A stretch of 64,000 nucleotides of DNA from assembly GCF_022201045.2 (NCBI RefSeq), contig NC_068563.1:29113001-29177000 (forward strand), given 5' to 3'. The DNA is from Citrus sinensis. Its lineage: Eukaryota; Streptophyta; Magnoliopsida; Sapindales; Rutaceae. Numbering within the stretch: the stretch's first letter is position 1; every line of letters starts with the position of its first letter. Below are positions 2,105 to 56,059 of the stretch, one piece after another. The notes beneath the pieces are model-generated. The model saw only the letters and a program-made list of their open reading frames with translations, searched no databases and had not been told where the DNA came from. The position numbers were made by a program, and so were the translations under genes.

Positions 2105-4207
2105 ATGAAAACACTTGTTGAAGAATTTTCTGGTTCCATGAAGAATCCTTTACAATTCGATCGTGGTTCAGTTTCAACATATTCGAACCGGAACCATGTC
2201 GATAAGTTTAAGCTGAAACAGAGCCGCGAACCGATAGATCCTCCTCTTCCTCCTTCAGCTTCCCTTCAAAACAATCAAAACCCACCGAGTGATTCAGATT
2301 CATCATCCACTATGAGCTCATATGGAGATCCTGCAGACATCTGTGAGCTGTCTAATACAACTCTTAAGTTTATAAGTGAGATTCTAATGGAAGAAGACCT
2401 AGAGGGTAAGACTTGTATGTTGCAGGATTGTTTAGCCCTCCAAGCCGCTGAGAAATCATTTTACGATGTTCTTGGCCAGAAATACCCACCTTCACCAAAT
2501 CAAATATCTCCTTGTTCGAGTCGAAACTCTGAGACCCTCAATGATTATTGCACTAGTGGCAGTACTAGTGTTAACAACTTGTTTGAGCCCAATTGGATGA
2601 GTAATCAGGGGGATTCCAGTTCCTCTATTACTCAGACTAATCTTTTTAATTCTCCCGAAAGTGTCCTTGTACCAAATTTATTTAGTACTGGCAGTTCTTT
2701 CCTTTTAAACGATAATACTGCTATTATTAATTCAACAAGTGACTCAGCAAAGTCGCCTGAAGGGGAAGACAGAACTTACAGTTCACCATATGGGTCAAGG
2801 GGAAGAAAATATGATGAATTGGAGGATAGTGATTATCTTGAAGAAGGGAGGAGCAACAAGCAATCTGCACTTTCTCCTCCCGAAAATGAGCCATTAGAGA
2901 TGTATGATGAAGTGGTGCTATGTAAGTGTGAGAACAATAAGTCTACAGTATGTTTGATTCACGGCTACGTGCAAAATGGATCCAGTGGAAAGTTGCAGCA
3001 AAATGGGCAGCCAAAAGGGTCTAGCAGTGCAACAACACGCTCCAGGAGGAAAGGAAAGAAGAGCGAAGTTGTGGATTTGTGGACACTTTTAACTTTGTGT
3101 GCACAAGCTGTGGCTAATTATGACCAAAGAACTGCAAATGATTTCTTAAAGCAGATTAGGCAGCATTCTTCTCCTTTTGGTGATGGAATCCAAAGATTGG
3201 CACATTACTTTGCTAATGGCCTTGAGGTACGCCTGGCTGGGACTCGGACACCGGTTCAAACTCATCTAGCAAGTAGCAGAGCATCAGCCGCTGAAGTCTT
3301 ACAAGCTTATAAGGTGTATGTTTCATCCTGCCCCTTCAATAGGATGACATTTTTTATGGCAAACAGGATGATTTTGAAACTAGCAGAGAAAGCAACGAGG
3401 CTCCACATTGTTGATTTTGGTATTGGCTATGGTTTCCAGTGGCCTTGCCTCATTCAGCGCATTTCGAAAAGGCCTGGTGGCCCTCCGAAGATTCGTATGA
3501 CAGCCATTGAGTTTCCTCAGCCAGGGTTCAAACCTGCAGAAAGAGTTGAAGAGACAGGGCACCGGTTAAAATGTTATTCCCAGAGATTTGGTGTCCCATT
3601 TGAGTACAACACCATAGCACAGAAATGGCAGAATATCCAACTTGAGGATCTCAAGATTGACAGAGAAGAGATGACAGTTGTTATTTGTTTGTACAGGATG
3701 AGGAACTTGCCTGATGATACGGTTGTCATTAACAGTCCAAGAGATGCTGTTTTAGAGTTGATCAAGAAAATAAATCCAGACATTTTCATCCATGGAGTTG
3801 TTAATGGTACCTACAATGCACCCTTCTTTCTGCCACGATTTCGAGAGGCACTCTTTCATTTCTCCACGTTTTTTGATATGTTTGAGTCTACTGTACCTCG
3901 AGAAGATCAGGGGAGGATGATATTTGAGAGAGAAATATATGGGAAAGACGCCATGAATGTCATTGCGTGTGAGGGTATAGAGAGGGTTGAAAGGCCAGAG
4001 ACTTATAAGCAATGGCAGGCCCGGAATCTGAGAGCTGGATTCAAGCAGCTTGAACTAGACAAGGACATTCTGAAGACTATTAGGACTTTGGTTAAATCAA
4101 ACTTTCATCCAGATTTTGTTATCGATGAAGCTGGCGAGTGGATGCTGCAAGGATGGAAGGGGAGGTTAGCCTACGCACTTTCTTTCTGGAAACCTGTTAA
4201 GGATTGA
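2105..4207 (+). CDS. GRAS-family transcriptional regulator, SCL14/SCL33-like (LISCL clade)
   Basis: A single uninterrupted frame encodes 700 residues, the usual size and intronless form of LISCL-type GRAS proteins. The N-terminal 300 residues are low-complexity and Ser/Asn/Asp-rich with acidic stretches, as expected of the variable activation region. The GRAS domain starts near residue 320 (VVDLWTLLTLCAQAV, leucine heptad repeat I). The VHIID-type motif follows near 433 (LHIVDFGIGYGFQW), the PFYRE region near 557-590, and a SAW motif at the C terminus (WMLQGWKGRLAYALSFWKP). Known relatives act in the nucleus as co-regulators, SCL14 with TGA factors in detoxification responses; the exact role here is inferred. 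An in-frame TGA directly precedes the start, so translation cannot begin further upstream. A second ATG lies four bases upstream in another frame. The next in-frame Met is residue 12. Confidence 0.95.
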   Translation: MKTLVEEFSGSMKNPLQFDRGSVSTYSNRNHVDKFKLKQSREPIDPPLPPSASLQNNQNPPSDSDSSSTMSSYGDPADICELSNTTLKFISEILMEEDLEGKTCMLQDCLALQAAEKSFYDVLGQKYPPSPNQISPCSSRNSETLNDYCTSGSTSVNNLFEPNWMSNQGDSSSSITQTNLFNSPESVLVPNLFSTGSSFLLNDNTAIINSTSDSAKSPEGEDRTYSSPYGSRGRKYDELEDSDYLEEGRSNKQSALSPPENEPLEMYDEVVLCKCENNKSTVCLIHGYVQNGSSGKLQQNGQPKGSSSATTRSRRKGKKSEVVDLWTLLTLCAQAVANYDQRTANDFLKQIRQHSSPFGDGIQRLAHYFANGLEVRLAGTRTPVQTHLASSRASAAEVLQAYKVYVSSCPFNRMTFFMANRMILKLAEKATRLHIVDFGIGYGFQWPCLIQRISKRPGGPPKIRMTAIEFPQPGFKPAERVEETGHRLKCYSQRFGVPFEYNTIAQKWQNIQLEDLKIDREEMTVVICLYRMRNLPDDTVVINSPRDAVLELIKKINPDIFIHGVVNGTYNAPFFLPRFREALFHFSTFFDMFESTVPREDQGRMIFEREIYGKDAMNVIACEGIERVERPETYKQWQARNLRAGFKQLELDKDILKTIRTLVKSNFHPDFVIDEAGEWMLQGWKGRLAYALSFWKPVKD

Positions 4208-9658: not shown

Positions 9659-12047
9659 ATTTTCAAAGTCCTCAAGTGGGTATTAGCTCTCTGACTCGGT
9701 GATCATGGTGTGTTAATGGTTCATCATTGTCTTTGTTGTAGTTTATGTTTGTTGATTTGTAAAGTTTGGGGACAAAATCGGATTGTGAATATGGTTTGTA
9801 TTTTGTTGATTATATCTTGATCAGTTCCCCCGCCACCCCCAAAAACCATGAATACATGTTTATCATCAATTTACTTGTTGGTTAGCTTTTGATCATTTGA
9901 ATGAGTGGCTACGTATCAGATATGTATTAAACACTCACAGTTATAACTTGCTGGTGGGTCTAAACGTTAATCTTGCATTTTAACTTCATATTTTCAATAA
10001 TGAACAGAAGCCTAACTGGAAATTATATTTAGCTTGTCAAATTTCTTTGTTGCTCTTTATTTTTGTTTTTGTTTTTTACTTCTGATCATGTATGTCGGAG
10101 ATTTCAGGCTTATGAAAACCATCACGATGCAGCATTTGAAAGAAAGTACCGTTGTTACCCTATTTCTTTCATTGATAAGGTAAAGAGTAGTGTTTATAGC
10201 GAATGGAATTCAATTTGATTTTCCTTCTTTTGTTCTATACAAGGAGATATTATTGGTAATATCCCATGGTGTTTTGTGTGTCAAAATAATTAAAATCTTT
10301 GCAGCCACATCTGGAAAATGGTGATAAAAGTACGTATATCCTCTTCAACAAGTTCTATGATGTTTCACCTAATAAATAGGTAATTTTTTTTCCTGAGTGT
10401 TTTGAATTAACTGATCATAAGATTTGTTATTGCTTCCAGTTGTCATGCCACCATCAGCTCTTGATCGCCTCGGTAAGTACCAAGAAGAGAAGTCTGCTTT
10501 TAGCCTTATCTTCATTCTGTGTTCTGGCTGCTGCATTTTGTTGGGATCTTGCTTGACATAATTATATAATTCTCTCCAGCCTATTTGCATATTGAGTATC
10601 CTATGTTGTTTGAATTGAGTAATACTTCTGCTGGGCGGGTCACTTATTGTGGAGTCATGGAGTTCATTGCAGATGAGGGTCTGATTTACTTGCCATACTG
10701 GGTAAGCTTTTGCAATTTTCTAATTGTTCATAAGTATGGTGGTCTCTTTCTTGATGACGTTGCAAATAAACTAAATCAGCTCCTTTCATCTCTTTGAAGT
10801 GAGAAAATGAGCAGCAAGCTGAAATTTGTAAACATGAAAATCATCAGGTTCTTTCTTTGTTGATATTTGTCATGCTTATCTTCTTGATTTCAGATGATGG
10901 AAAACATGCTACTACAAGAGGGAGATATTGTGGAAGTTAAGAATGCCAGCCTAGCAAAGGGATCTTATGTGAAACTGCAGCCTCACACGAAGGATTTTTT
11001 AGACATCTCCAATCCAAAAGCCGTGTTAGTTTATTGCTCTGTCATCTCCTTTTCTACAAGATAGCTATGAGAGCCATATTTTCCCTTATGCCCATTTGAC
11101 AACCTTTTTGCATTGTGTTGACTTGCAGCTTGGAGACTACATTGAGAAGCTACTCTTGCTTAACCACTGGTGACACTATCATGGTTCCTTATAACAATAA
11201 GAAGTATTACATTAATGTAGTCGAAACAAAGCCATCCACGGCTGTCAGTATAATTGAAACAGACTGTGAGGTGGACTTTATCCCTCCTCTTGATTTTAAA
11301 GAACCAGAAAAACCTTCATCATCTTCTCTGTCAAACAGGACACTACCTGAAGGTTTTTACCCCCTGAAAATGTCTCTTTTTGATATCTGTTAATCTGAGT
11401 TTTGGGTTTACAAATGACCATTAATTATTATCTTTCAGTAAAAGAAGAGCCTCCTCTTGATTTTAAAGGACCAGAAAAACCTTCATCATCTTCTCTGTCA
11501 AACAGGACACCACCTGAAGGTTTTTATCCCCTTAAAATGTCTCTTTTTGATATCTGTTAATCTGAATTTTGGGTTTACAAATGACCATTAATTCTTATCT
11601 TTCAGTAAAAGAAGAACCTCCAAAAAAGATTGCCAAGTTCAGCCCATTTACCGGTTCTGGCAGACGCTTAAATGGAAAATCCTCAACGCAGCCCGCCGTA
11701 TCACCTTCCTCTCCACTGATTGACAATCCTCAACAAAATGCTGCCAATGGGATTAACGGTTCCAAGTCATCAAGTGCTTCATCTCGTCAGAAATCTGGAA
11801 AACTCATATTTGGTTCAAATGCAAACCAATCTTCAAATGGAACCCCAAAAGTATGTTTTCTGTTGAAATTATCTTTTGTAATAATTTGATTCTATAACTG
11901 CTGATTAGCTGATCCTTAAATTCATCAATTGATTTTCCTTTTGTACTTCAGGTTCTGCCAAAAAGCAGCAGTGGGGAGCCACCTCAGGTCGAGGAAAAAC
12001 CAAAGTTCCAAGCATTCACTGGGAAGAAGTATTCACTGAGAGGTTGA
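9659..12047 (+). CDS. UFD1: Ubiquitin fusion degradation protein 1 (UFD1)
   Basis: Exons in frame: 10108-10179, 10305-10329, 10440-10472, 10580-10701, 10894-11024, 11129-11352, 11439-11519, 11606-11850 and 11952-12047. The most plausible start is an ATG at 9705-9707 that directly abuts a GT donor in exon 9659-9707, leaving one coding codon there; the total is then 343 residues. Recognisable blocks are [77 protein letters not shown] and the C terminus [16 protein letters not shown]1 with NPL4 is the CDC48/p97 cofactor that extracts ubiquitylated proteins, for example in ERAD. The N-terminal double-psi barrel is complete. The gene carries a tandem duplication that adds an in-frame exon (11439-11519) compared with the expected layout. 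Without it the protein would be 316 residues, close to the length I recall for the Arabidopsis protein. Confidence 0.9.
11283..11616 (+). repeat. 167-bp tandem duplication inside UFD1 (two copies)
   Basis: Copy 1 is 11283-11449 and copy 2 is 11450-11616, equal in length. By eye they differ at seven positions (about 4%) with no gaps. Each copy starts CCTCC, and a third CCTCC begins directly after copy 2 (11617), so the breakpoints lie at a five-base microhomology. The unit spans the end of one exon, a whole intron of 86 bp and the first 11 bases of the next exon. Copy 2 therefore supplies a new acceptor-exon-donor set and an 81-nt chimeric exon. Confidence 0.95.
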
Positions 12048-12181: not shown

Positions 12182-12434
12182 TATAACATTATGTTTGATT
12201 ACTCAAGTTTTGTGTATGTACACATTCTTTCACATGTCAGTAATTCTGGAGATTCAAGGACAGAACAAAAATATTGAGAAAGAAAAATGCTCAGGTGAAA
12301 ACAGTGGTTTTATAACATTATGTTTGATTACTCACGTTTTGTGTATGTACACATTCTTTCACATATCATATTCTGGAGATTCAAGGACAGAACAAAAATA
12401 TTGAGAAAGAGAAATGTTCAGGTGAAAACAGTGA
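12182..12434. repeat. Tandem duplication of about 129 bp downstream of UFD1
   Basis: Copy 1 (12182-12310) and copy 2 (12311-12434) both begin TATAACATTATGTTTGATTA and run through GATTCAAGGACAGAAC to GGTGAAAACAGTG. They differ by a handful of substitutions and a two-base gap, so the identity is roughly 95%. Confidence 0.9.
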
Positions 12435-12551: not shown

Positions 12552-14180
12552 CTAAGCAATGACCGATGTTTCGATGGAAACCTTTCCTGAATAGCTGATG
12601 CTCTCTGAATTCTCACCAGCAACTTCCCAGAGCTCCGGCAATGCTTCCTTGATATTGTGGATGCTCTCTAATGCATAGTCCACACCTTCAGCTCTGTGGG
12701 AAGTTCCCACCTATTTCCCATATCATGAAAATTTAAGGGAAAGGAAAAAATGAGTACTTCTGTAGGTAGCTAAGCAAGAACATGAGAAAATTGAAAAGAA
12801 AACTCTAAGCAACATCAGCAGCCTCGCTTACCCATACAGTATGAAGCCCCAATCTTTTACCAGTCTCTAAATTACGAATACTGTCATCAAAAAATATCTG
12901 CGATGAAAGATATAATAATTAGTTAGTGGATAATTACAGATGATAGAGCAGAAACATGAAGAATGTGCAAATAGCACATTCCTAATATAAGGTCTGAATC
13001 AATTTGTGAAGGCAAAGAATTGGTTAAAATGCTAAATCATCTTACAGTTTTCCGAGGGTTGATGTTGGCAATCTTAAAAACTTGTTCAAATGCTTCTTCA
13101 AAAGGTTTGCAGACAACTGGAGTCCTTGGAAGTTCGAGATCAGCATTGGGACGAGAACAATAATCATCGATGTCAAATAATTCAGTAGGTCTTTCGGATT
13201 CAGAGGCATCCTGATCCACCAGAACAGTGCCTTTGTCCGTGGAATTCAAAGTTTCAAAGGATATAATTCTTTCAAAGCAATCCTCCAGACCAAGCCTGCT
13301 AAGCACTCTAGCAGCATGAGTTTTATCTGCATTGGTAAAAATCTACAAAAGGCGAGAACACCATCGTCATTTGAAGAGAAAAGATGAGTAAAAAAAATAA
13401 GAACAAGTTATCTATAAGCAAAAAGAAAAGACACTCACAACTTTCCGAATGGGCAGACTAAGCAAAAGATTCCTTAAAACAGGGTCAGGTTTTAGCATCA
13501 TGTAGGGCAATCTCCCATGAACATAACTGTAAAACATAGATAATGCGAGGTTGGGTGCTTTATACCTCAACTACACAAACGTACTGGAAGCTAAAGTGCA
13601 TACCTGTGGAAGTCATCACAGTCAAACTGATAGCCGATAGCCTATAATAAGGAAAAAAAAAAAAACCATGACAAACGACTGTCAACATGCTGAAGTTTCA
13701 ATATTCACCCCAAAAAAGAAAAAAAGAAAAAAGAAAAGAACACTTAGTCATACCCGAAGACCTGCCAATGTTGTCCCATAGAATTTGTACAAAGAAACAC
13801 ACAATTCAGGGACTTTAGCCTCCTCGATGCAAAGCTTTTGGAGCATATATTCTAGAGAAGTAAATAACAGAAAAGCCATGGAATTTGTCATAGTTTTCTT
13901 AAGAATAAAATAAATTTAATTGATTTGATGAAAAGGAAAAAAACAAACTATTATGCATGGGATACCTTGAATATTCTTGGTCACTTCTTTTGACAATCCA
14001 GAAGTCAGAGGATAAATGGTGTCATCTAGATCTGAAATTCAAATATAGCAACCAATAATGTCAACCTTCAACAGCAGTCAAATTAAAACACGAAAAATGA
14101 TGTACACATCAAAGCTTACCAAATAAGAGACAATCATATTTTTGGTTTGAAACCTGCTTGTTCTCATTCTTGTATTCCAT
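12552..14180 (-). CDS. HAD-superfamily hydrolase, pyrimidine 5'-nucleotidase (SDT1)-like, copy 1
   Basis: Eight minus-strand coding exons join in frame: 14120-14180, 13966-14031, 13754-13851, 13604-13641, 13439-13526, 13046-13342, 12832-12897 and 12552-12710, encoding 290 residues. HAD motif I is DLDDT at residues 21-25 (nucleophile Asp21, acid/base Asp23). Motif II is FTNAD at 119-123, the motif III lysine is near 196 in CKPFEEAFEQ, and motif IV is FFDDS at 218-222. This is the subfamily IA fold of the yeast SDT1/PHM8 group, which dephosphorylates UMP, CMP or lysophospholipids; the plant substrate is not shown by sequence. No transit peptide is evident, so a cytosolic site is likely. A 5'-UTR intron (14202-14857 region) separates the start codon from a leader exon ending at 14858. 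The neighbouring gene at 17583-19167 is a tandem paralog. Confidence 0.92.
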
Positions 14181-17582: not shown

Positions 17583-18695
17583 TTAGGCCGTGACTGGAGT
17601 CTCAATTGCAACATTCTCTGAGCATTTGATATTTTTGGAAATTTCATCGGCATCCCATAGTTCTGGAAACGCTTCCCTGATATTGTGAATGCTCTCCAAT
17701 GCATAATCAGCACCCTTTGTTCTCCGCGAAGTACCCACCTGTTACCGTATTGTGTACATACATAATTAGTTGATGAAAAAGGAAAATCAATTATGATCAA
17801 AAGAAGTTTCTTCAGGAATTGACAATAATGTTAATTTCTGAACTTAATTACCAACACAGTATGGAGGCCAATGCTTTTTGCACACTCTATGTTGCGGGTG
17901 CTATCGTCAAAGAACAGCTGAAACAATGCCAAACCGTACTCGCATTATAGACAAGTGCTTGATGATATATAGCATTTATGGGATTTTTAAAGTAAATTAA
18001 TTAGAATGATAAGGTTATGTAATCTTACTGTTTTATGAGGGTTGATGTTAGCTATTTTGAAAGCTTGTTCAAATGCATCCTCAAAGGGTTTGCAAAAAAT
18101 TGGACTCTTTGGAAGAACTGATGAGTAACCATTCGTAGCATCAAGATTAATTGCAGTTCTTGACCCGCTGCGCACCAGATAACCCCCATCAAAATTGTTA
18201 CTGGTTTTGTTGTTGGGATTGAGGCTCTCAAAATTTACAATCCCATCGAAGCAGTCTTCTAATCCAAGCTTTCTTAGAACTTTAGCCACGTGAATCTCAT
18301 CCGCATTTGAAAAGATCTGTCATATGCATTGCAATTATCATAAGGATAAAATTTTTAATAAACCTGACCAGTTCATCATCATTTGTGTCTGACATTGAGG
18401 CTGGGGAGATGCTTACAACTTTTCGGATAGGTAGGCTAAGTAGAAGATTTCTTAGAACAGGATCTGGTTTCAGGTTCTCATACGGTAATCTCCCATGAAC
18501 AAAACTGTAAAAATAGAAAACACATTACAAGTTATAATATAACAAAGGGAAAAGGACACTTATTCCCCTAAGATTTGCCCTAAGGCTTGAAGTGATCAAT
18601 ACAACTAGAAAGGAAAATAATGTTACCTGTGATAGTCATCATTGTCAAAGTCATAGCCAATAGCCTGCAAATTTACAATAATAACAGCATTTACA

Positions 18696-20621: not shown

Positions 20622-22301
20622 TCATGCCGGAGCAACCTGAGGCTCGAGTGGTGAAGAACCATCATCCACGGTTCCAGTCTCTGGGGGCGCTGAGCTCTTC
20701 TCTTCCTCTTCGAAACCTTGCTTGAATCTGTCATAATTTGTGAGCTCACTGGATTTGAATGGCCGTTCACCCAGAACTCGAAGCAGATCATCTTGGTGAA
20801 GAACTTCCTTTTCAAGCAATAACTCGGCAATCTGAGCTACATGCTCTTTGTGTTCCTCAATAAGTTGGACTGTGCGTACATATGCCTTGCCTACCCATTC
20901 TCGAACCTCGGCATCTATGATTGCCCCAGTCTTGCTACTGTATGGCTTACTCATTTCGAATGTGTCTTCTCTTTGTGGGAAAGACAAGAGACCAACCTTT
21001 TCGCTAAAACCATACACGGCAACTTGGGCATAGGTCATCTTTGTTACCTTCTCCAAGTCATTTTGAGCTCCAGTAGATATCTTCCCCAACAAAACCTGAA
21101 TTTCAAGAGGAAGGAAAGGCATATGTAAGAAAAGATACTATTCATACCATCAAAGGGCTAAGGAGCAAAGAAAGTCCATAGCTACCTGCTCAGCTGCTCG
21201 ACCGCCAAGGGTCATACACGTCATATCAAAAAGCTGCTCCTTTGTCAGAAGAAGGTTCTCGTTAGGGACATACTGGGCAAATCCAAGTGCAGCTGTACCT
21301 CGAGGAACAATTGTCACTTTTAACAAGGGTTCTGCATGTTCCAGAAACCATCCAGCAACAGCATGGCCGGATTCATGGTAAGCAACTGTCCGGCGCTCCA
21401 ACTTGCTTATAACCTATCAAAAACATGAACATAAGTAACTTCTCACATTAATTACTAGGAAAAGAAGAAAAAGTTGGGGATAGTTAAAAACACAGAGGTC
21501 AAAAAAGTTTAAAAAGCTATATCGTATTGAAGAAAACTTTTCAGCATCACCAACATATAATTTAATGCCAGAAAAAAAAAACTAAGGGTTACCTTATTCT
21601 TCTTCTCCAGACCACCAATGACCCTATCTATAGCTGCCTCAAAATGTTCCATTGTGACTTGTGAATTTTCACCCCTTGCAGCAATCAAAGCAGCTTCATT
21701 GCAAACATTTGCAATGTCTGCTCCAGCAAATCCAGGAGTGAGTGCTGCAAGCCTCTGAGAATAATAAGATGGTTCGTGATCAAGTTTGATCTTTTTCAAA
21801 TAAACTTGGAATATCTGGTCACGACCTTTAATGTCAGGTTTATCAATTGTAATTTGGCGATCAAATCGACCAGGCCTCAATAGAGCTTTGTCTAAAATAT
21901 CAGGCCTATTAGTGCCAGCAATCACAACTACTCCGGCAGTAGTTCCGAAGCCATCCATTTCCACCAGTAATTGATTAAGAGTGCTTTCACGCTCATCATT
22001 GGCACCTGAAAAGCCTCCGCGCCCTCGTGCTCGACCGATTGCATCAATCTCATCAATGAAAATTATACTAGGAGCACACTGCCTTGCTTCCTGAAACAAG
22101 TTTCTCACCCTAGAAGGCCCAACACCAACAAACATCTCCATGAAATCTGAACCAGATATAGACAGGAAAGGCACACCAGACTCCCCGGCAGTCGCTTTTG
22201 CAAGAAGGGTTTTTCCTGTGCCAGGAGGGCCTACCAAGAGAGCACCTTTTGGAATTTTCGCTCCAAGATCCTCATACTTCCTGGGGTTTTTCAGGAAGTG
22301 C

Positions 22302-22339
<38 letters not shown>

Positions 22340-27105: not shown

Positions 27106-27534
27106 CCAGCAAACGGTGGCATTTGGTAGACGCATGTTTTTTTCGGTACGGACTTATTCAATTTTGGGGCCCCATAAAGAATGCACACGTCCACTGGGAC
27201 CAAGTATTCTCGTAGGCTCATGATGGGAACGGGCCCGATTCTCATTTATGTAAGTGTACTTAAGAGACACCTGAACGCAATCATTCTATCATCATTATTG
27301 GGCTACACCAAATGCGGCTTTGAAGGCACGTAGCCCAAACACTGACTTAGGCCCATTATCTACTAAACAAATGAGTAGCGCCGATCATTAACTGAAACGA
27401 TCACATCTTCGGACCTGAGCGAGCTATCAGCTTTCTTTCGCCGCTGCTTTTTTTTTTTTTTTTTTTTCTCTCGAATGATATTAAGAATTTCATAATACTT
27501 CCCATTGAAAGTTCTTTCTTGCTTCACTTACAAC

Positions 27535-28728
27535 ATGGAAGCCACCACATCAGTTATTATCCACTCGAGAACCATTCCATTTGGTTTCACGTTCACAAAC
27601 AGTCCAAAAATCTCTTTCAGGCATTTCAACAAACGCTTACAATTACAAAACCAGCTACCAAATCACCGCTTTCACTCCCGGCTAAGCCCTAACCTTATCA
27701 AAACTCAACCAAGTTTAATTTTTTCCCTGAAAAGATCAAGAACCCGTTTCTTATCTCCCGTCAAATGCTCTCTTTCCGACTCCGCAAGCCCCGATTCTTC
27801 CCAAAAGACATGGCTAGAGCCCTTCAAAAACCTAAGTGTTGATAAAATTAAGACAGCCGTTTTAAAGTTAACCCCTTTTGATATTATCAAGTGGTCTTCT
27901 ATCTTATCCATTGCAATTGCAGCCACTAAATGGACTGTGAATTTAGTTTTAAACCCATTTTTTTGGATGTATTTTAGCTGGACTTGGTTGTTTTGGCCTT
28001 GGTATGTGGCTATAGCCCTTGGTGTGTACGGCTTATACTGTTTCAGAAAGCAGTCACTTGGCGAAGCAAGCATATTTGAGCAACTTGCTATTGTTACTTC
28101 ATTGTTTACTTGGCTAACATTGGTGCCACCAGCCGTTTTCAATGGCTACCTTGAAGGTTGGCCTTTTGTGTTCTTTTTCGTGTACCATTACTTCTTTTTC
28201 TTCAATGTTAGTGTAAGAAAACGGTTGTATGGTGATTATTATGCACGTGAGCACGATCCCAGGTGGGATATAAATACTCCCACATGGTGTCGCATTTTGT
28301 TTACTATTGGTGTCATGGCTGGCCATTGGCTTGTGGCATTTGAAGGGCCAGAATTGCATAGGATTCCTGGTGGATGGAACAATGCAGGGATGTGGATTTT
28401 GATAGTGTTGACATTGCTAATGCAATATAACTCAACATTGTATCTCGCAAAGTATTCGGAGAAGGTGGTGGTGCCAACCGCAGTTGTGCAGTTTGGACCG
28501 TATAGGTGGGTGAGGCATCCGATATATGCTTCGACAATGCTACTGTTTGTGACTTACTGTATTGCACTCCGAGCACCTTTGAGCTTGCTATTTCTTGTAG
28601 CGGTTTGTTTGGTGTATTATGAGCAGAAGGCAAAATTAGAGGAGGCTTTGATGGTAGAGACTTTTGGAGAAAGATACTTGGAGTATGCGAGTAAAGTTAG
28701 GCACAAGTTCATCCCCTTTGTTTACTAG
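27535..28728 (+). CDS. Predicted plastid membrane methyltransferase-like protein (ICMT/phospholipid methyltransferase fold)
   Basis: One uninterrupted exon gives 397 residues from the ATG at 27535; the reading frame extends upstream only to a TTG, so this ATG is the start. The first 80 residues are Ser/Arg/Lys/Asn-rich and nearly free of acids, typical of a chloroplast transit peptide (inferred). Several hydrophobic segments follow (about residues 118-170, 185-225, 263-283, 295-312 and 333-360). The C-terminal third has GPYRWVRHPIYAS (about 318-330) and a downstream EE pair with FGERYLEY, the signature of the isoprenylcysteine/phosphatidylethanolamine methyltransferase fold that binds S-adenosylmethionine at a membrane surface. 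The substrate is unknown. A donor-like CACAG/GTATGC at about 28739 and acceptor CTGCAG near 29008 suggest a 3'-UTR intron. Confidence 0.8.
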   Translation: MEATTSVIIHSRTIPFGFTFTNSPKISFRHFNKRLQLQNQLPNHRFHSRLSPNLIKTQPSLIFSLKRSRTRFLSPVKCSLSDSASPDSSQKTWLEPFKNLSVDKIKTAVLKLTPFDIIKWSSILSIAIAATKWTVNLVLNPFFWMYFSWTWLFWPWYVAIALGVYGLYCFRKQSLGEASIFEQLAIVTSLFTWLTLVPPAVFNGYLEGWPFVFFFVYHYFFFFNVSVRKRLYGDYYAREHDPRWDINTPTWCRILFTIGVMAGHWLVAFEGPELHRIPGGWNNAGMWILIVLTLLMQYNSTLYLAKYSEKVVVPTAVVQFGPYRWVRHPIYASTMLLFVTYCIALRAPLSLLFLVAVCLVYYEQKAKLEEALMVETFGERYLEYASKVRHKFIPFVY

Positions 28729-31700
28729 TGGCTCACAGGTATGCACTAATTATTTATGAATTGTAATGGATGTATAAACTCAAGTATTTGAGCATCAAAA
28801 TGTGGATGGAAATGCTAGATTATATTAAACAGAGCTGCACCTCTCTTTTCTGATATCACACGTCTATTTCTTGGTTGTTTTCAAAGCCATTTATATATGC
28901 CTAGTTGATAGATTTTTATGTTCTTCATTTTTTCTTTATATGGTTGAGGCTTCAGTATATTAGCTGTGCAATTGTGGCACTTTGCTTTTGTGGTGTCCTT
29001 GGCTGCAGGCATGTGGGTTTGTAAAATGCCAGCAGTATGGATCTGATTATCCACCCTAGACTAATTCAAGGTTTTCATATGCCATGGGTGTTGGTCAACA
29101 TGATTTCATTTTCCTTTACAGAATTATGCACAAATTATTCTCCATTTGGTGGTTTAACAACAACAGTGACGCATAGGCATACCAGAGGTAACAATAATAT
29201 CAAATTTATTGTGTCATGGCTGCTTTCTGGAGCTAGACCATATTAATTTGTTCAAGATCTAGAAAATACAACAGTCATGCATATGATATGATATAGGTAT
29301 TTTATTATATTCCCAGAATTTATATTTCTTTTCTGGTGTTTTTTTTATCCATGCATAACACACGCACTTGCGAAACCTGGTAGAAAGCCCCATTTAAAAG
29401 ACGTAAATGCAGATACCGTCAAGTAATAATTTTATTCACAGTCTCTTATTATTCTGGAATGTGTGCAAACATGCCTGTGCTAAGGGCTGTAATCATTTTA
29501 CTGCTTCGTTGCATTTCTTAACTTTATAATTGCATTGAGAAATGAATAATTGAAGAAATCAACCAACCCACTGAATTGATTGCATCTAGAAATTTTGCTG
29601 AGAGATGGATTTCTGAGATGTGATAGTGCTTGAAAATAAGTTAAATATCAAGATCGGGAAGCTTAATTTATTACGCTTCTCATTGCACTTTTTCCATATT
29701 GATATTTATTAGTTTCAAGAAGTGAGCGAGCTTCTTCTTCATAGTTTTTTGCGAATGGTAGCATGAACAAACTAATCTCCACTTGAGTTTGGACATTTTC
29801 ATTTGGTTGCCTAAAAAAAACGACATGCGGGTCAATTAACTTTGCTTCTATCCACCTTCTTCATGCTTAACCTGCCTTGCCCTTTCTCAGAAATTATTGA
29901 CCTACCTTTTTTTTTTTTTTTTAACTCTCATTGCATATGGATCATTGTTCTTGGATATGAACCTGCAGTTAAGTCTATTCCTTTGACTGAGCAGTAGTAC
30001 CTCCCTTCGCTTTTCATAGATATAGTATCAACAATGTTTTGGTAGGCGGAGGCTTCATCCCTTCCATTATTCTCAAAGCCATATTGGCATAAGAAAGATG
30101 TGTGACTTCATATCATTGGTCAGCATAAACCTGAGCCATACTATTGTAGCATAAAGCTGCTTACCATGCAATCCCATCTGTGATCAGAATGGGCCCAACA
30201 TTCCAATGACTGATAAGCTTTGCTGACTAACACAGCGGCTGTCTAAATTTTAGAAAGATAAAAAGACCAGTAGAATGTAGAAGCCACCTCGCATTCACTC
30301 TATGGCCAACTGGTGTACGCCACATATTGCGCTCTCACTCACCCAAATTTGATGTCCTTGTAAAAGGATCACTTCAAAATAATCAGAGGTTCTTCCTTTT
30401 GAGAGCATTTGAGCCATCACTTTATCAAATGTCCTTTGCTGTATATTTGTTTTTTTTTTGGGACTAGTAGACAAGAGTTATTGGTCCTATTTTGGCTTCT
30501 CAGTTCTATCAAGTCCTCCAAATAGAGATCTGTTGGCTTCTTTCTTCTTGCTTTCTTGCTTTTTTTTTATGTCATTTGTGTGTGCGTGAGAGTTTAGTCA
30601 TCGTTAGACTAAACTTAAGCTGTTTGGCTCTTTATAGATAGAGAGCAGACCAAAACATTACGTTATGTCTGCTTGGCCTGTGAGAGGGCTTTATAGAATT
30701 ATTTATTGATTTTTTTATCATTCTACCACCATTTTCTTTTTATGAGGCATGAGCGAAATAATCAGAGGTTCTTTCTTCTGAGAGTGTTTTAGCCATCACT
30801 TTATCGTATGTCCTTTACTATATATTTGTTTTTTCAGACTAGTAGACCAGAGTTATTGGTCCTATTTTGGCTTCCCACTTCTATCAAGTTCTCCAAGTAG
30901 AGATGTGTTGGTTTCTTTCTTCTTACTTTCTTGCATTTTTTATGTCATTTATGTGGGCGTGAGAAATACAAGTTAGCATGACCAATGCTTCTTGTGTGTT
31001 GCACTTGGTCTTGAGATTTTGAATTCCCTCCATATCTGATGAATTTAAAGATTCATCTCCATTTAATTCGTGATTCTACAGTAAAGCAATCTATTTAACT
31101 ATATTTATACTTTGGCTTAACGTTTCTGTGTTTGGCATGAGAAATGGGCCTCATTGGGGCATGTTATCCTTGTGAAAAGTGTTTTCATTAGCTACAGTGG
31201 ACATGCTTTCAGTGTGTTTAATATTGTGCCAAAACATCATGAATTTAGAAAATAGGTGTTTGCAATGTTAAGAAGATGTTATTGATCTTCTGTGGACATG
31301 CTTGTCAAAGTTGTGGACTTTTCTGTGCTGACTGAAATTAGGACGAGGGAAGCTTCCTGTGTATGCTTACATTTTCGCATAAGTAGTTCCATTGTAGGAA
31401 CAAAAGTCTGCATGTTAGCCGTATACATGAAGTTACATTCTGTATAAGAAGATTTGTCAATACTGGTGGGGGCATTTTTGTAATGGGGGGTGTATTGAGA
31501 TGATCCATGTGAGAAAGAGCTCGACCTAAAAATTGGGGCTTCAGGGTTATGTCTTCCGAGTTGTGTTCAAGATTCCTTTATTATGTTTTGGATAAGGGCA
31601 TAGGGGACCTCCCTTTTAGTTCTCGGGACTCGGTGCACTTCATGTGTTAGATTTTGCGGTGGACACTTTTCTGAAAATTGAAAACCAGAAGAATCATTAT

Positions 31701-33020: not shown

Positions 33021-37927
<4,907 letters not shown>

Positions 37928-40866: not shown

Positions 40867-43685
40867 GCTAGGGCCCGTTGCCCTTACGGCCTTATCCTAA
40901 TCCTCCCTCTCCCCGACTACAGGAGATTGATTTTGGATGTACTTGTGATCATCTTTGGAATTGTGAAGCACTTAAAGTTCAACCCATGAAGTTAATTGTA
41001 TCACATTGTTAGATTGCGACGTGCCGCATGCGATCAAGATTTTGTAGCATAAAGCCATAAACTCTGGACATTACTACAGTTAAAAATTGTTGGTTTTTTT
41101 TTTTTAAATTTTAATACAAATTAAACAAAAGAAGAACAAAATTACTAGATATTTGCTTTTGAAAAAATGTTGGATATTTCATCGACAGGGATAAATAATA
41201 TTCGGATCCTCATTGTCCTTACCCGCACAAAGAAGGATACAAATTTGTTACTCACCCTCATCATTCTAACGACGATCAATATTACTCCGCGTCTGATCTG
41301 ATCAATGTATAATTGTTTGAACAGGATCTATTTGATAAAATGTGAGAACTGTTGGATGCTTATAAGAAAATGACAGGCGGCAAAATTTCTTGATTGCCAT
41401 GTGGCAAAACGGGACTGAAGAGTAGCCGTCAGATCTTTTATATTATAACTTGACTCTCTTGTATAATGAGGGTTAGTTGTCTCTCCACATTAGAGTATAA
41501 TCAATCTCCCTCCAATATTAATTATGAGTGTAACATTCGGATTGTGCTGTAATAGGATTACTCAAGAGAATCTTGATTGATTTCTGATTGGAAATATCAA
41601 TAAAATTCTGATTATAATATATTAGTGTATAAAAAAAAAAACACACACACACATTTTTGTTTTGTGTGGCATCGGCCATGGTAAACCCGGGCATTGTCAT
41701 TTTATTGGAGCAACTCAATTTATTTATTAACTTATAAAATTTGTACACGTTTGTGTTTGTCAATTTAATCTGCCATGTTTGACTTTAAATGAGATTTAAT
41801 GTTTCTTGTACATTTTGTCCTTGATTCGTGTAGTATAATGAAGAAATCGCCCTCGTTACAACGTTTTTAGTTAGTTCTTTGTTTCCCAACTAATAACATT
41901 GCAAAGACTTTGCTTAAGTGGAGGTTTTGTGGCATAATCATTTAGGAGTTGAGATGATTGACAAGTGCAATTTTTTTCCCCTTTTGAAAGGAGATTTTAA
42001 TTTGACAGGTGTTGAATAACAAGAACATTTGGAACATATTCTAATGACATACACATGAATTAATTTTTTTTAAAAAAAGAAAAGAAAAAGAAAAGATACG
42101 TTATTTGGCTTGTATGTAAAAGATATATTTTAAAAAATTTAACAAATCTTGTGGAAATCCTTCTTTAATCCTCAATCGATTTGACAAGATTACTGATAAT
42201 GAATGCGGTGATGTTACAAAGTTTCTTATTCAAGTATCTAGAATATTAATTGAGATTTTGCTTGGAGTAATAACCATATTTTGTCTAAAAGGGATCTAAT
42301 CCTCTTCTTTATTGAAGGTTTATGGGGAAAACTAAATTATATATCAGGAGGTTCCAAGCTGAGAAAAGTGTTGTGGTATTGATTCTAATGAGGTGCTTCC
42401 AAAACCAAAAATAGCAACTCCACATTTTGCATTTTTGTGATGGTACATGATTCTTGCCTTCACTTTTCTTCATTCAGGCACCAGTACCATCAATTTGAGA
42501 AAAAGCTTGAATGGAAAGAAAACCAGTGGTTTGGTTTGTGTGGGCTTACAAGTTGGGCCGTTAATTTTTGCAGCTTACAACTGCCGGAACTGCAATGGCT
42601 AGAGAGGAGTAGGTCTTTTGACACCCCTTAAAAGTTTCATATAACCCCCTTTATTAGAAATTACATAAATATCCAAAGATAAATTTGAATGAAAATTCAA
42701 TTAAACACTTCAATAAAATTTTATTTCAACAAAATTTTTACACCCACCCCATTTTATAATTTATATTTATGTTATAAATTTTTTAATTGAACGAATAATT
42801 TTTTTGAGAAAATTATGAGAGTTTAGAGTTTCAAAGACAAAAATATATAATACTAAGATCTTAGAATTTACATGCAATTTATAAATAAAACTTTTTAAAA
42901 AAATTTTGGAGTGAAATTCTATGGAATAGTGATTAATTTGAATACACTGATTTGCATTTTATGATTTTAATTCACAGTATTTTAAGAAATAAAATTGAAA
43001 GGGGGTGCTAATAGAATTTGGAGGAGTGCTAAAAGCTGGCACGAGAAATGTTTGAACCAAATTAGCCTAAAATTGTTAGTAGGCCCAATTGTTGTTGATC
43101 TTCTCGAAACGTTGCAATTTCTTGTAATTCTCCAATATTTACCAAATATTGGCACTTGTTTTATTGGAAACAATCGTCGGTAAAAATAAAAAAAAAAAGG
43201 TAAAAAAAAAAAAAAGCGCTTCTTACATTTTCACATCTGTGAAAAGGGTTTGAGTCTGATGTATATTAAGTTCGTTTTTATTTTTTCAATATTTGAAAAT
43301 AGATTTAACTATGAACAAATATCAATTCTCTAAATAGATTTAGGTGTTGTTTGTCTTTTAGCCTAGAGTCTGAATTTAACTTTTTTGCAAACATTAACTT
43401 ATGTTTAGTTGTTTGTTTTCTTAACTTATCACTTATTGTCAGATAATTTTATCTGAACAAAAAAAAAAGAAAAAAAATTACTTTTATTTGAAGTCTGAAA
43501 TCTAAATAGAAAAATTTAGTTTCAAATCTCAATAATACTCTTAACAATTCATGTTCTTTTCTATATTATATATAAATCTAACATTTTTGTATTATCCTTG
43601 AAGTTATTTTTTAAATTGCTTCAATTTTTTATGCACATGGTAACTTTAAGTAAAGCAAAATATGGGACAAAACAAATAAGATTAT

Positions 43686-44549
43686 GGGAAATTTGTAACC
43701 TACCCCCAAATAAATTGACGTTTTGCACCGCGTCCCTAACAAATTTGACTTGTTGCACTGCGCACCCAAAAAAATTGACATTTTTGCACCACGCCCCCAA
43801 TTCCGTTATTTTCTCAGTTAAGTTTAACGGCTCCGTTTAACTTTTGATTGAATGACAAAAATGCCCCTCTATGTAAAAAAAACAAAATTTTTAGCTCATT
43901 TAATTTTTTAAGGTTTTTTTTTCAATTGTAATAAAAAAAACAATTCTTCTTACATGTTCATTGTCACCACTATTATTTTTTCTTTAATTTTTTAAAGATT
44001 TTTTTTTCAATTTTAATAAAAAAAATTCTTGTTACATGTACATTTGTCACCACTATTATTTTCCTTTAATTTTTTTAAAGATCTTTATTTCAATTGCAAT
44101 AAAAAAAATTTCTTGTTACACGTACATTGTCGCCACTATTATTTTTTCTTTAATTTTTTAAAGATTTTTATTTCAATTTTAATAAAAAAAATTCTTGTTA
44201 TATGTACATTTATCACCACTATTATTTTCCTTTAATGTTTTAAAGATTTTTATTTTAATTGTAATAAAAAAATTTCTCGTTACATGTACATTGTCACCAC
44301 TATTATTTTTTCTTTAATTTTTTAAAGATTTTTATTTTAATTACAATAAAGAGAATTCCCATTAAAATTAATTTAAAGAATAAACTTCCAATTTTACCCC
44401 TCCACTGTTAAACTTAACTGAGAAAATAACGGAATTGGGGGCGTGGTGCAAAAATGTCAATTTTTTTGGGTGCGCAGTGCAACAAGTCAAATTTGTTGGG
44501 GACGCGGTGAAAAATGTCAATTTATTTGGGGGTAGGTTACAAATTTCCC
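43686..44549. mobile_element. Mutator-like MITE, 864 bp, with 143-bp TIRs and 9-bp target-site duplication
   Basis: Terminal inverted repeats of about 143 bp (43686-43828 and 44407-44549) are over 90% alike by eye, both starting GGGAAATTTGTAACCTACCC. They are flanked by the perfect 9-bp direct repeat TAAGATTAT (43677-43685 and 44550-44558), the size typical of Mutator-like elements. The interior has no transposase. It is mostly five tandem copies of an 83-bp unit. The matching short peptides readable on opposite strands at each end are by-products of the inverted repeat, not genes. Confidence 0.92.
43930..44350. repeat. 83-bp minisatellite, five copies, inside the Mutator-like MITE
   Basis: The marker CACCACTATTATT (or CGCCACTATTATT) recurs at 43965, 44048, 44131, 44214 and 44295, that is at spacings of 83, 83, 83 and 81. 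Each unit also has TCTTGTTACATGTACAT or a close variant and CTTTAATTTTTTAAAG. Confidence 0.93.
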
Positions 44550-46376
44550 TAAGATTATATCTATTGTGATGTATCAAAACTGAAATAACAATGTTGACTT
44601 CATAATGAAAGTTGATGTTAATATGTTATAGTTACATCTTTAATTACAAAATTAAATTAAGAAACAATGATAGTATATATTTTTTAATGTTATCAAACTA
44701 ATTAACTTGTTAATCTTCTTAATTGTGAAGGGCAAATATATGTCCCGCTTAAAAAGATATTTGTGTCAAACTACTAACTTTTAAAATTTTATATTGATAT
44801 GTTGAAAAAAAAGAAAAACAAACATGCTATTTAGATATTTATATTCAGAACTATTCAGATTTTGGTTAAGTTTAAACTTATTTAGATTTCGAATAAGAAA
44901 AAATAAGTAACCTTGGACTTACCATTTGTAGGTTTTAGTTAATTTTGTTTTCTTTTAATTTTTGTTCATTTTTACAAATGCTGTTGTTCTATATTTCAGT
45001 TTTTTCGTGGTTCAAATTTTTTAAACCGAAATTGTATTGATTATTAAACCAAATGGCTTAGTTTGGTTGAATTATACTTCTATCCTTATGAGTCCATGTA
45101 TACATACAGATCTATCCCACCGCTTTGTTATCCTAAGCCCACTTGAATTTGTATTTTATTTTACTCATTCATTCATTTATTTATTTTTTAATATGACTAC
45201 TCAATTAGTTACAATAAACCAATAATATAATTTAGAAGCTAACAGATGCAATCCCAATTTTAAGCTCCAACAATCCTGGTTCATGGTAAAGACATTGCAG
45301 AAAATATCTATGTGTAGGAACTTGTTCATATGTTATTGAAGTTGGATTTATTAATAATTAATATTATTCTTATTGCATCATATTCACAGGCGAGCTTCTC
45401 AATATGGCACGGTGGCTCCCCCCTCGGCCAAGAGATAAACATAAACTTGACGCTGTGTATGAGTCCAAGACTGCCACCCAATGTGTCAGTCAGAGAAGCA
45501 TTTAAAACAAACAGATCATCAATTCATCATCTTTGTTTAGTGAGAACCGTTCGATTAGCATCCAATGCTCTACTCCGCAGGATCCCGTACTTTGTCCTTC
45601 GAATCGACGTGTGTGCATTGACAATTACATAAAACTGGAAAAAATCATAAAAATAAAAAGAAAATAAATTTAGGTAGTGTTTATTTTTTTATCTGAAATT
45701 TAAATGGGTTTAAATTTTTCTGAAGTCTTAATAGATTTGAATATAAAAATTTAAATAACATGTTTATTTTTATTTTTTAATATTTAAATATAAATGGTAT
45801 CTTATTTTTTTTATAATAAAAAATATCTTAAATTTAATTATTTGACATTTATGTCCTTATAAATTAAAATAAAAAAGAGGATTAAATTTTATAATTTAAG
45901 AAATAAGTTATTTTATAGAGATATTTTTAAAATATAATATTTAGTTGTCATTCAGATATTTTTTTATTTACATAAAAATTACAAAATTTTATTTTTTTTA
46001 TTCAGATATAAATATCTAAAAATCAAACATAAATATAAAAAAAAAAATTTTAAAAATATCTTAAATTAATAAAATTTCAGACTTCTTAGTCCGGAATCCG
46101 GATAACGCGTAGGGTTCGGCCAACACAATTGGAAAGTGCTGGTAAGCGGCGTTTCCCGCGCTTTTTTAAGTGACCTCGACTGGGGCCTTGGCGCCATTTT
46201 TAATTCAAGCGGAGTTCAAATCTGACGAGTGTCCTTCCCACGTAGATCAAAGCGCAACCGTTAATTGAAACGTGGGTACGCACGATGTCTCGCTGTAGTC
46301 ATCCCTAGCCACAAATTTCAAAACTAGCAAGTTCGAGAACACGCCACCAACCGCTTCGAAAAGTTCATCGACATCT

Positions 46377-51660: not shown

Positions 51661-51860
51661 ATGGAGCTGATAAGATCTCATCAAGAGCTAGCTGCTGCCA
51701 ATATTTGCGGTTGCGGCATCATCAAGATTCACAAGCTTTAGCAAGGGAATTCATTGAATAGGCCTATTCAAAAGTTCCTTCCAAATAATGGGAATCTTGA
51801 TGATGCTGCATCAGCAAATATTTGACTACGATTCATACCACTTTTGAATTTCAAATACAC
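51661..51860 (+). ncRNA. MIR172: MIR172 microRNA precursor hairpin
   Basis: The 21 nt at 51791-51811 begin GGAATCTTGATG and end ATGCTGCAT, identical to the mature miR172e form known from Arabidopsis. The opposite arm at about 51713-51732 reads GCGGCATCATCAAGATTCAC, a fitting miR172* with a small number of mismatches. The stem extends outward: AATATTTGC (51700-51708) pairs with GCAAATATT (51814-51822). A palindromic GAATAGGCCTATTC lies in the loop. The mature strand is on the 3' arm, as in all MIR172 genes. miR172 represses AP2-type factors and so promotes phase change, flowering and floral patterning. The primary transcript probably starts near 51370 and may be spliced; its ends are not defined. 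Confidence 0.95.
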
Positions 51861-55502: not shown

Positions 55503-56059
55503 TGCAAATACACTATTAATACACTATAAAGTTGTGCGGTTTAATAATATTAAAAAATGACTTTGTTGAACCTCACGGCTTAAAAGCATGTATACATGAA
55601 AAAAAACTTGAAAACACGCGCACTAGAGAAGGAATATATATACAACAATCCCAATGTTTAGAAATGATATTAACCCATTTAGCTTAGCGCCAGTTTGGTA
55701 ATGTTGTCACTTTTTAAATAATTGTTATTCACTAATCTATATAAATAATTAACTGTAAAGAAAATTAATTAAATGTTTGGTTGCAAATACACTATTAATA
55801 CACTATAAAGTTGTGCGGTTTAATAACATTAAAAAATGACTTTGTTGAACCCCATGGCTTAAAAGCATGTACGCATGAAAAAAAAATTGAAAACACGCGC
55901 ACTAGAGAAGGAATATATATACAACAATCTCAATGTTTAGAAATGATATTAAGCCATATAGCTTAGCGCCAGTTTGGTAATGTTGTCACTTTTTAAATAA
56001 TTGTTATTCACTAATCTATACAAATAATTAACTGTAAAGAAAATTAATTAAATGTTTGG
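55503..56059. repeat. Tandem duplication of 279 bp (two copies)
   Basis: Copy 1 is 55503-55781 and copy 2 is 55782-56059. Both begin TGCAAATACACTATTAATAC and contain AAACACGCGCACTAGAGAAG and AGCGCCAGTTTGGTAATGTT. By eye they are about 95% identical. Confidence 0.95.

What the first reader, a model, noticed from the sequence alone, without database searches (positions are those of the whole stretch)
11283..11616. UFD1 gained a chimeric, frame-preserving exon through a 167-bp microhomology-bounded tandem duplication
The two 167-bp copies abut exactly and start with CCTCC, which also follows the second copy. The unit runs from inside one exon, across an 86-bp intron, to 11 bases into the next exon. 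The new exon (11439-11519) is thus 11 nt of downstream-exon sequence plus 70 nt of upstream-exon sequence. It is 81 nt long, has good AG and GT borders and no stop, and adds 27 residues ([15 protein letters not shown] and on) to the linker after the UT3 domain. Inclusion or skipping both keep the frame, so two isoforms are possible. About 4% difference between copies suggests an event of a few million years at usual plant neutral rates.
Basis: partly seen in the sequence, partly recalled or inferred. Interest (0 to 1): 0.75.

Follow-up and report, generated by a model that had tools for sequence, protein, structure and literature searches.

The report
Tandem duplication adds exon to UFD1
In a plant gene for the protein-recycling factor UFD1, a short stretch of DNA was copied head to tail so that the gene seems to have gained one extra intron and a small in-frame exon that would lengthen a flexible tether by 27 amino acids; this is a clean but ordinary kind of change, and its use in RNA is not yet shown.

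Summary
11283-11449 and 11450-11616 are two abutting 167-bp copies with 7 differences (4.2%); CCTCC starts both copies and follows the second. The gene is a UFD1 homologue: ten predicted exons join to a stop-free 343-aa frame with both UFD1 N-terminal Pfam subdomains. The unit holds a whole 86-bp intron, so the duplication yields a second intron copy and a chimeric 81-nt exon (11439-11519) with inherited splice signals. The extra 27 residues repeat a segment just after the UT3 fold (25 of 27 identical) and lengthen the tether to SHP1 from 31 to 58 residues, against 29 and 54 in two UFD1 chains of the PDB (counted). Less special: 32.9% of breakpoint pairs would also keep frame without stops; the window holds two more two-copy duplications with about 4% divergence, one just past this gene. 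The age is loose (about 0.6-18 My). Skipping also keeps frame; which form is made is untested. Similar events are published in plants. Verdict: real, probably spliced in, a new member of a known kind; no RNA or plant relatives could be examined.

The parts
9705..12047 (+). UFD1 homologue, inferred coding span (343 aa with the new exon, 316 without; start codon inferred as the last 3 nt of a leader exon)
   Evidence: exon joining gives one stop-free frame; Pfam UFD1_N1 1.7e-39 and UFD1_N2 1.6e-37; the ATG at 9705 is an inference
11129..11352 (+). upstream parent exon; its last 70 nt (11283-11352) lie in the duplicated unit
11283..11449 (+). copy 1 of the 167-bp unit
11450..11616 (+). copy 2 of the 167-bp unit
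11283..11287 (+). CCTCC microhomology, first occurrence (reads Pro-Pro in frame)
11450..11454 (+). CCTCC at the duplication junction
11617..11621 (+). CCTCC following copy 2 (also Pro-Pro in frame)
11353..11438 (+). 86-nt intron, copy 1 (retention gives a stop at residue 217)
11439..11519 (+). predicted new chimeric exon, 81 nt, phase 1-1, 11 nt of downstream-exon plus 70 nt of upstream-exon sequence
11520..11605 (+). 86-nt intron, copy 2 (retention gives a stop at residue 244)
11606..11850 (+). downstream parent exon, carries the SHP1-like motif FTGSGRRL
12182..12433 (+). separate two-copy tandem duplication starting 135 bp past the UFD1 stop, 4-nt insert at its junction; context, not part of the new exon

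Best explanation
One germline tandem duplication of 167 bp, joined at a 5-bp microhomology (CCTCC), copied a complete 86-bp intron together with 70 nt of the exon before it and 11 nt of the exon after it. The gene thereby received a second copy of a working intron, and between the two introns a chimeric 81-nt exon whose acceptor and donor are both inherited. CCTCC sits in the same reading frame (Pro-Pro) in both parent exons, so the join keeps frame. The exon is most likely included as the only or the major form, giving a UFD1 with a 27-residue tandem repeat in the flexible tether between the ubiquitin-binding UT3 domain and the SHP1 Cdc48-binding motif: a longer reach for UT3, probably near neutral. 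Shown: duplication, junction, open frame, position in the protein. Inferred: break-repair origin, splicing, tolerance.
For: Exact abutting copies and 5-bp flush homology; by base composition a flush homology of 5 bp or more has probability 0.0067. Both introns keep GT and AG, the same T-rich 3' end and a TTAAT branch-like site, have lower G+C (0.30 and 0.28) than the three exons (0.39-0.43), and have equal calculated donor-U1 pairing of -4.1, inside the range of the gene's other seven predicted donors, -1.6 to -10.7. Retention of either intron gives an early stop, while inclusion or skipping of the exon gives a complete frame. Pfam UFD1_N2 ends at residue 182 and the repeat begins at 181, so the fold is spared. 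Distance from the conserved glutamate (KEP/VEP) to the SHP1 phenylalanine: 58 with the exon, 31 without; 29 in 9yrc_H and 54 in 8dar_H (my count; human and yeast by recall). In the human p97 complex UT3 is too flexible to see (PMC13087191, passages).
Against: No RNA evidence and no relative was available, so neither splicing nor polarity is tested. The duplicated donor GTTTTT pairs with U1 over four bases only. The two amino-acid differences between copies are not conservative: E to G at a glutamate aligned with E in both PDB chains, and L/P; this could mean relaxed constraint or a little-used exon. CCTCC is not the longest microhomology the two exons share (a 7-bp pair exists). Three duplications of like divergence in one window leave some room for an assembly cause.
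Confidence: 0.75

Rival explanations
1. The duplication is real, but the new exon is mostly skipped (11352 joined to 11606), so the protein is the 316-aa form and the copy is tolerated as intronic baggage.
For: Skipping gives a full frame of 316 aa; the donor of the new exon pairs weakly with U1; one residue shared with both PDB chains has changed in the new exon.
Against: The donor of the parent exon is equally weak and must be used in either case. Short introns with inherited signals favour joining of neighbouring sites (general knowledge of plant splicing, untested here).
Confidence: 0.12
2. Both forms are made in regulated amounts, giving UFD1 isoforms with a short and a long UT3 tether and different substrate reach.
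For: Both forms keep frame; the two predicted linker lengths, 31 and 58, lie close to the 29 and 54 counted in two known UFD1 chains.
Against: No sequence feature that would regulate the choice was looked for beyond splice sites, and none was seen; no RNA data.
Confidence: 0.06
3. Assembly artefact: two haplotype copies of one stretch were placed head to tail.
For: Three two-copy duplications above 94% identity have like divergence, 7/167, 5/123 and 10/278 (homogeneity p = 0.94), as haplotypes of one heterozygous plant would. The three were picked by high identity, so part of the likeness is by choice.
Against: The join falls on a 5-bp microhomology, and the other two joins carry 4-nt and 1-nt inserts, not expected of contig overlaps (inference). 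Older abutting repeats exist in the same window, 74.7-89.7% identical. No N in the window.
Confidence: 0.05
4. An older duplication kept alike by gene conversion or unequal crossing-over, so the 4% does not date it (this overlaps with the main reading and concerns age alone).
For: Tandem copies are prone to conversion (general knowledge).
Against: The simplest reading needs none, and the seven differences are spread along the unit; untested without relatives.
Confidence: 0.1

Closest known systems
Potato RdRp intron gained by tandem genomic duplication (PMC4974935; abstract and Results section read)
   Same: Plant gene, recent small tandem duplication crossing an exon-intron border, new intron and inserted exon sequence with mostly inherited splice signals, ten differences between copies, and a second tandem duplication in the same gene.
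   Different: There the new donor was a cryptic exonic GTAAG. Here both splice sites of the new intron copy already existed, because the whole intron lies in the unit. The potato case has RNA-seq and relatives; this one has neither.
CENP-C exon-pair duplications in grasses (PMC549713; passages seen)
   Same: Tandem duplication of exons in a poorly conserved middle region of a plant gene needed at every mitosis.
   Different: Exon pairs were copied there; here a chimeric exon arises from two part-exons.
Tandem genomic duplication model of intron gain, AGGT type (review PMC3443670; passages seen)
   Same: Tandem duplication raises the number of introns.
   Different: The AGGT model creates novel splice sites. 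[quoted passage not shown]
Rice insertions as tandem duplications from patch-mediated break repair (Vaughn and Bennetzen 2014; not read, known only from passages of PMC7407515)
   Same: Size class 10-1000 bp, tandem, ascribed to end joining.
   Different: Here the mechanism is inferred from one junction alone.

Membership tests
UFD1 (ubiquitin fusion degradation protein 1) | UFD1 N-terminal subdomains 1 and 2 (UT3) | tested here: met
   PF03152 133.8 bits (cut-off 29), PF24842 127.8 bits (cut-off 37); PDB UFD1 chains 9yrc_H E 1e-68 and 8dar_H E 5.9e-54
UFD1 (ubiquitin fusion degradation protein 1) | SHP motif(s) after UT3 | tested here: inconclusive
   FTGSGRRL at 245 lines up with FSGSGNRL of 9yrc_H in the expected order, but this stretch scores only 5.8 bits on its own; FTGKKYSL at 334 is taken as a second motif by recall
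UFD1 (ubiquitin fusion degradation protein 1) | binds Npl4 and Cdc48 | not testable with these tools
   no binding data
Intragenic tandem duplication with intron and exon gain | two abutting direct copies that include an intron | tested here: met
   (intron by prediction)
Intragenic tandem duplication with intron and exon gain | single copy in the outgroup | not testable with these tools
   no whole genome held; scans of genome contigs and viral contigs found no relative
Intragenic tandem duplication with intron and exon gain | new intron and exon spliced in mRNA | not testable with these tools
   no RNA data
AGGT-type intron gain by tandem duplication | new intron uses splice sites made from duplicated exonic AGGT | tested here: not met
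   both predicted introns use the copied pre-existing GT and AG
Microhomology-mediated duplication | short flush homology at the junction above chance | tested here: met
   5 bp; probability 0.0067 by composition; one event only

The most novel reading that the evidence does not exclude
This plant lineage makes two UFD1 forms whose UT3 tether differs about two-fold (31 against 58 residues) by optional use of a recently born chimeric exon, which tunes how far UFD1 can reach for ubiquitin on Cdc48 clients.
Probability: 0.05. Interest if true: 0.6.

Novelty: new member of a known kind. Interest (0 to 1): 0.27.

Why it matters
It is a compact, recent example of how one small duplication can add an intron and a coding exon at once without breaking the reading frame of a core gene. 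The frame match is cheap (about one in three) and the target is a flexible tether. It would also be a natural experiment on UFD1 tether length, in a protein whose exact function is still called unclear. It does not change any general picture.

Tried and rejected
The window's own genome: none is held (error). Relatives in prokaryote genome contigs: 19 stretches matched a pattern, none confirmed by tblastn (a second scan was allowed and not used). Viral contigs: no match (1 of 8 scans used). So there is no outgroup. Gao and Lynch 2009 (PMC2791625) is not held; it is known to me here only as a reference of PMC3443670. For a report of this exon in plant UFD1 I searched with three to five terms: 1 paper, unrelated; 1 paper, CENP-C; 2 papers, cancer fusions; 3 papers on UFD1 and At2g29070, 1 opened for passages, 2 not opened. 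That is a narrow search of open-licence papers, not proof of absence. Phage, plasmid and E. coli collections were not searched, as they cannot be expected to hold a plant nuclear gene. Structure prediction was not tried: the spliced protein is not given letter for letter by the window DNA, which the tool requires.

Selection on the new exon was considered and dropped: 2 replacement and 1 silent difference give no power. An empirical microhomology count (202 of 4401 positions) includes the duplication itself and was not used; the composition-based value was. My first gene-model script mis-set one exon start, and the model listed with exon end 11852 is out of frame; 11850 is the end that works (of four tried; asserted; both forms and both intron retentions rechecked). 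The breakpoint and microhomology counts rest on the copy-1 sequence alone; with copy 2 the microhomology pairs are 52, 21 frame-keeping, against 49 and 19. For the comparison of divergences I took 3 abutting two-copy repeats above 94% and left out the other abutting rows: 25113 (87.9%), 43896 and 43899 (89.7 and 86.7%) and 54671 (74.7%, also two-copy).

Full report
Observation. The window holds a direct tandem duplication of 167 bp at 11283-11449 and 11450-11616. The copies differ at 7 of 167 positions: 11302/11469 A-G, 11344/11511 T-C, 11360/11527 C-T, 11366/11533 G-T, 11399/11566 G-A, 11427/11594 A-C and 11449/11616 G-A. CCTCC begins copy 1, begins copy 2 and follows copy 2, so the flush homology at the junction is five bases. 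The best 100-bp self-match around the site is 96 of 100, against at most 50 in 30 shuffles; it is not chance.

Gene. Joining ten predicted exons gives one open frame of 343 residues ending in a stop at 12047. Of four tried ends for the second-last exon only 11850 leads in frame into the final stop. The start ATG at 9705-9707, alone at the end of a leader exon, is an inference. Pfam finds UFD1_N1 at residues 11-105 and UFD1_N2 at 107-182, and a CDC48_2 match below its cut-off. PDB comparison finds 6 distinct sequences at E up to 0.001, all named as UFD1 or its synonyms, from 1e-68 (9yrc_H) to 3.9e-53 (1zc1_A). I call 9yrc_H human and 8dar_H yeast by recall; the call gives no organism. A review lists four Arabidopsis loci under UFD1 (PMC4012192, passages). 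From memory the window protein resembles the At2g29070 type; this was not tested. That the window is from a plant is likewise judged from its genes and a MIR172 match, not given.

Anatomy. The unit spans the last 70 nt of the exon 11129-11352, the whole 86-nt intron 11353-11438 and the first 11 nt of the next exon. After duplication there are two 86-nt introns and between them an 81-nt exon (11439-11519) that starts and ends in phase 1. [quoted passage not shown] Inclusion gives 343 aa and skipping 316 aa; retention of the first or second intron gives a stop at residue 217 or 244. Both introns keep the same T-rich end and TTAAT element and are poorer in G+C than the exons. Their donors have equal calculated U1 pairing of -4.1, within the range of the other seven predicted donors of this gene, -1.6 to -10.7.

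How special is it? Taking every pair of breakpoints with one in each parent exon, 18,046 of 54,880 (32.9%) would give a frame-kept, stop-free gene (copy-1 sequence). The two exons share 49 microhomology pairs of 5 bp or more, 19 of them frame-preserving, the longest 7 bp; with the copy-2 sequence the counts are 52 and 21. A flush homology of 5 bp or more at a random join has probability 0.0067 by base composition, so the junction does point to a microhomology-guided process, but this is a single event. The window has two further two-copy tandem duplications above 94% identity: 12182-12433, starting 135 bp past the UFD1 stop, with a GTTT insert at the join and ATAAC shared by the unit start and the right flank; and 55503-56059, with a one-base insert at the join. 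Divergences are 7/167, 5/123 and 10/278, statistically alike (p = 0.94). I chose these three by identity; older abutting repeats of 74.7-89.7% identity also occur (25113, 43896/43899, 54671). Small tandem duplications therefore look frequent in this window, of several ages. Inserts and microhomology fit end-joining repair; PMC8355091 (passages) reports in mouse cells that polymerase-theta duplications are larger and more often carry microhomology than most. The like divergence is also what an assembly of two haplotypes could give, so I keep that rival at about 5%.

Age. 7/167 gives a Jukes-Cantor distance of 0.043 (95% limits 0.017-0.090). That is 3.1 My (1.2-6.4) at 7e-9 per site per year, 1.4 My (0.6-3.0) at 1.5e-8, and 8.6 My (3.4-17.9) at 2.5e-9 (rates from general knowledge, species unknown). 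Gene conversion would make it a minimum.

Protein. The result is a 27-residue tandem repeat, 25 of 27 identical, starting at residue 181, at the end of the UT3 fold, and ending before the SHP1-like FTGSGRRL at 245. The distance from the conserved glutamate (KEP here and in 9yrc_H, VEP in 8dar_H) to the SHP1 phenylalanine is 58 with the exon and 31 without, 29 in 9yrc_H and 54 in 8dar_H (counted by me on the alignments). The longer form is thus near a known length. [quoted passage not shown] In the human p97 complex UT3 is too flexible to be seen, SHP1 precedes the Npl4-binding loop, and the exact function of Ufd1 is called still unclear (PMC13087191, passages). The two replacement differences are E to G at a glutamate that aligns with E in both PDB chains, and L/P. 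The first suggests that the G, in the new exon, is the derived state; which copy is the newer one has no meaning beyond that.

Most likely working. The exon is probably spliced in, and the longer tether is probably tolerated. Two isoforms are possible but no sequence evidence favours them. Splicing, polarity and fixation are untested because no plant genome or RNA was available here.

Known relatives. The potato RdRp gene (PMC4974935, abstract and Results read) is the nearest published case I saw. Grass CENP-C (PMC549713, passages) shows tandem exon duplications. [quoted passage not shown] This one belongs to that set-aside class, with the extra that its new exon is chimeric.

Verdict. Confirmed, ordinary in kind, worth noting in an annotation; interest 0.27.

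Noticed in passing
window 12182-12433: Two-copy tandem duplication just past the UFD1 stop (5 of 123 aligned positions differ plus a 2-base gap, GTTT insert at the join, ATAAC shared by unit start and right flank).
   Followed up: partly
window 55503-56059: Two-copy 279-bp tandem duplication, 96.4% identical, one-base insert at the join.
   Followed up: partly
window 43677-44558: Fold-back element: 143-nt terminal inverted repeats, 98% complementary, holding 30-bp repeats in the arms and an 82-bp tandem array between them. It is flanked by a perfect 9-bp direct repeat TAAGATTAT, the size typical of Mutator-like elements (recalled).
   Followed up: partly
window 51701-51821: MIR172 precursor match, 86.4 bits on + and 73.7 on - against a gathering score of 70.
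   Followed up: no
window 13039-13543 and 18022-18520: Two short stretches (94 and 110 bp) 83% and 79% alike, about 5 kb apart in the same order, perhaps neighbouring paralogous genes. The 31-aa translation of one had no Pfam hit.
   Followed up: no
window 30377-30591 and 30756-30964: Direct repeat of about 215 bp, 87% identical, not abutting.
   Followed up: no
window 2105-4207, 21509-22312, 27505-28728, 37302-37679: GRAS protein; AAA ATPase part with AAA lid; phospholipid/isoprenylcysteine methyltransferase-like protein; cytochrome P450 piece.
   Followed up: no
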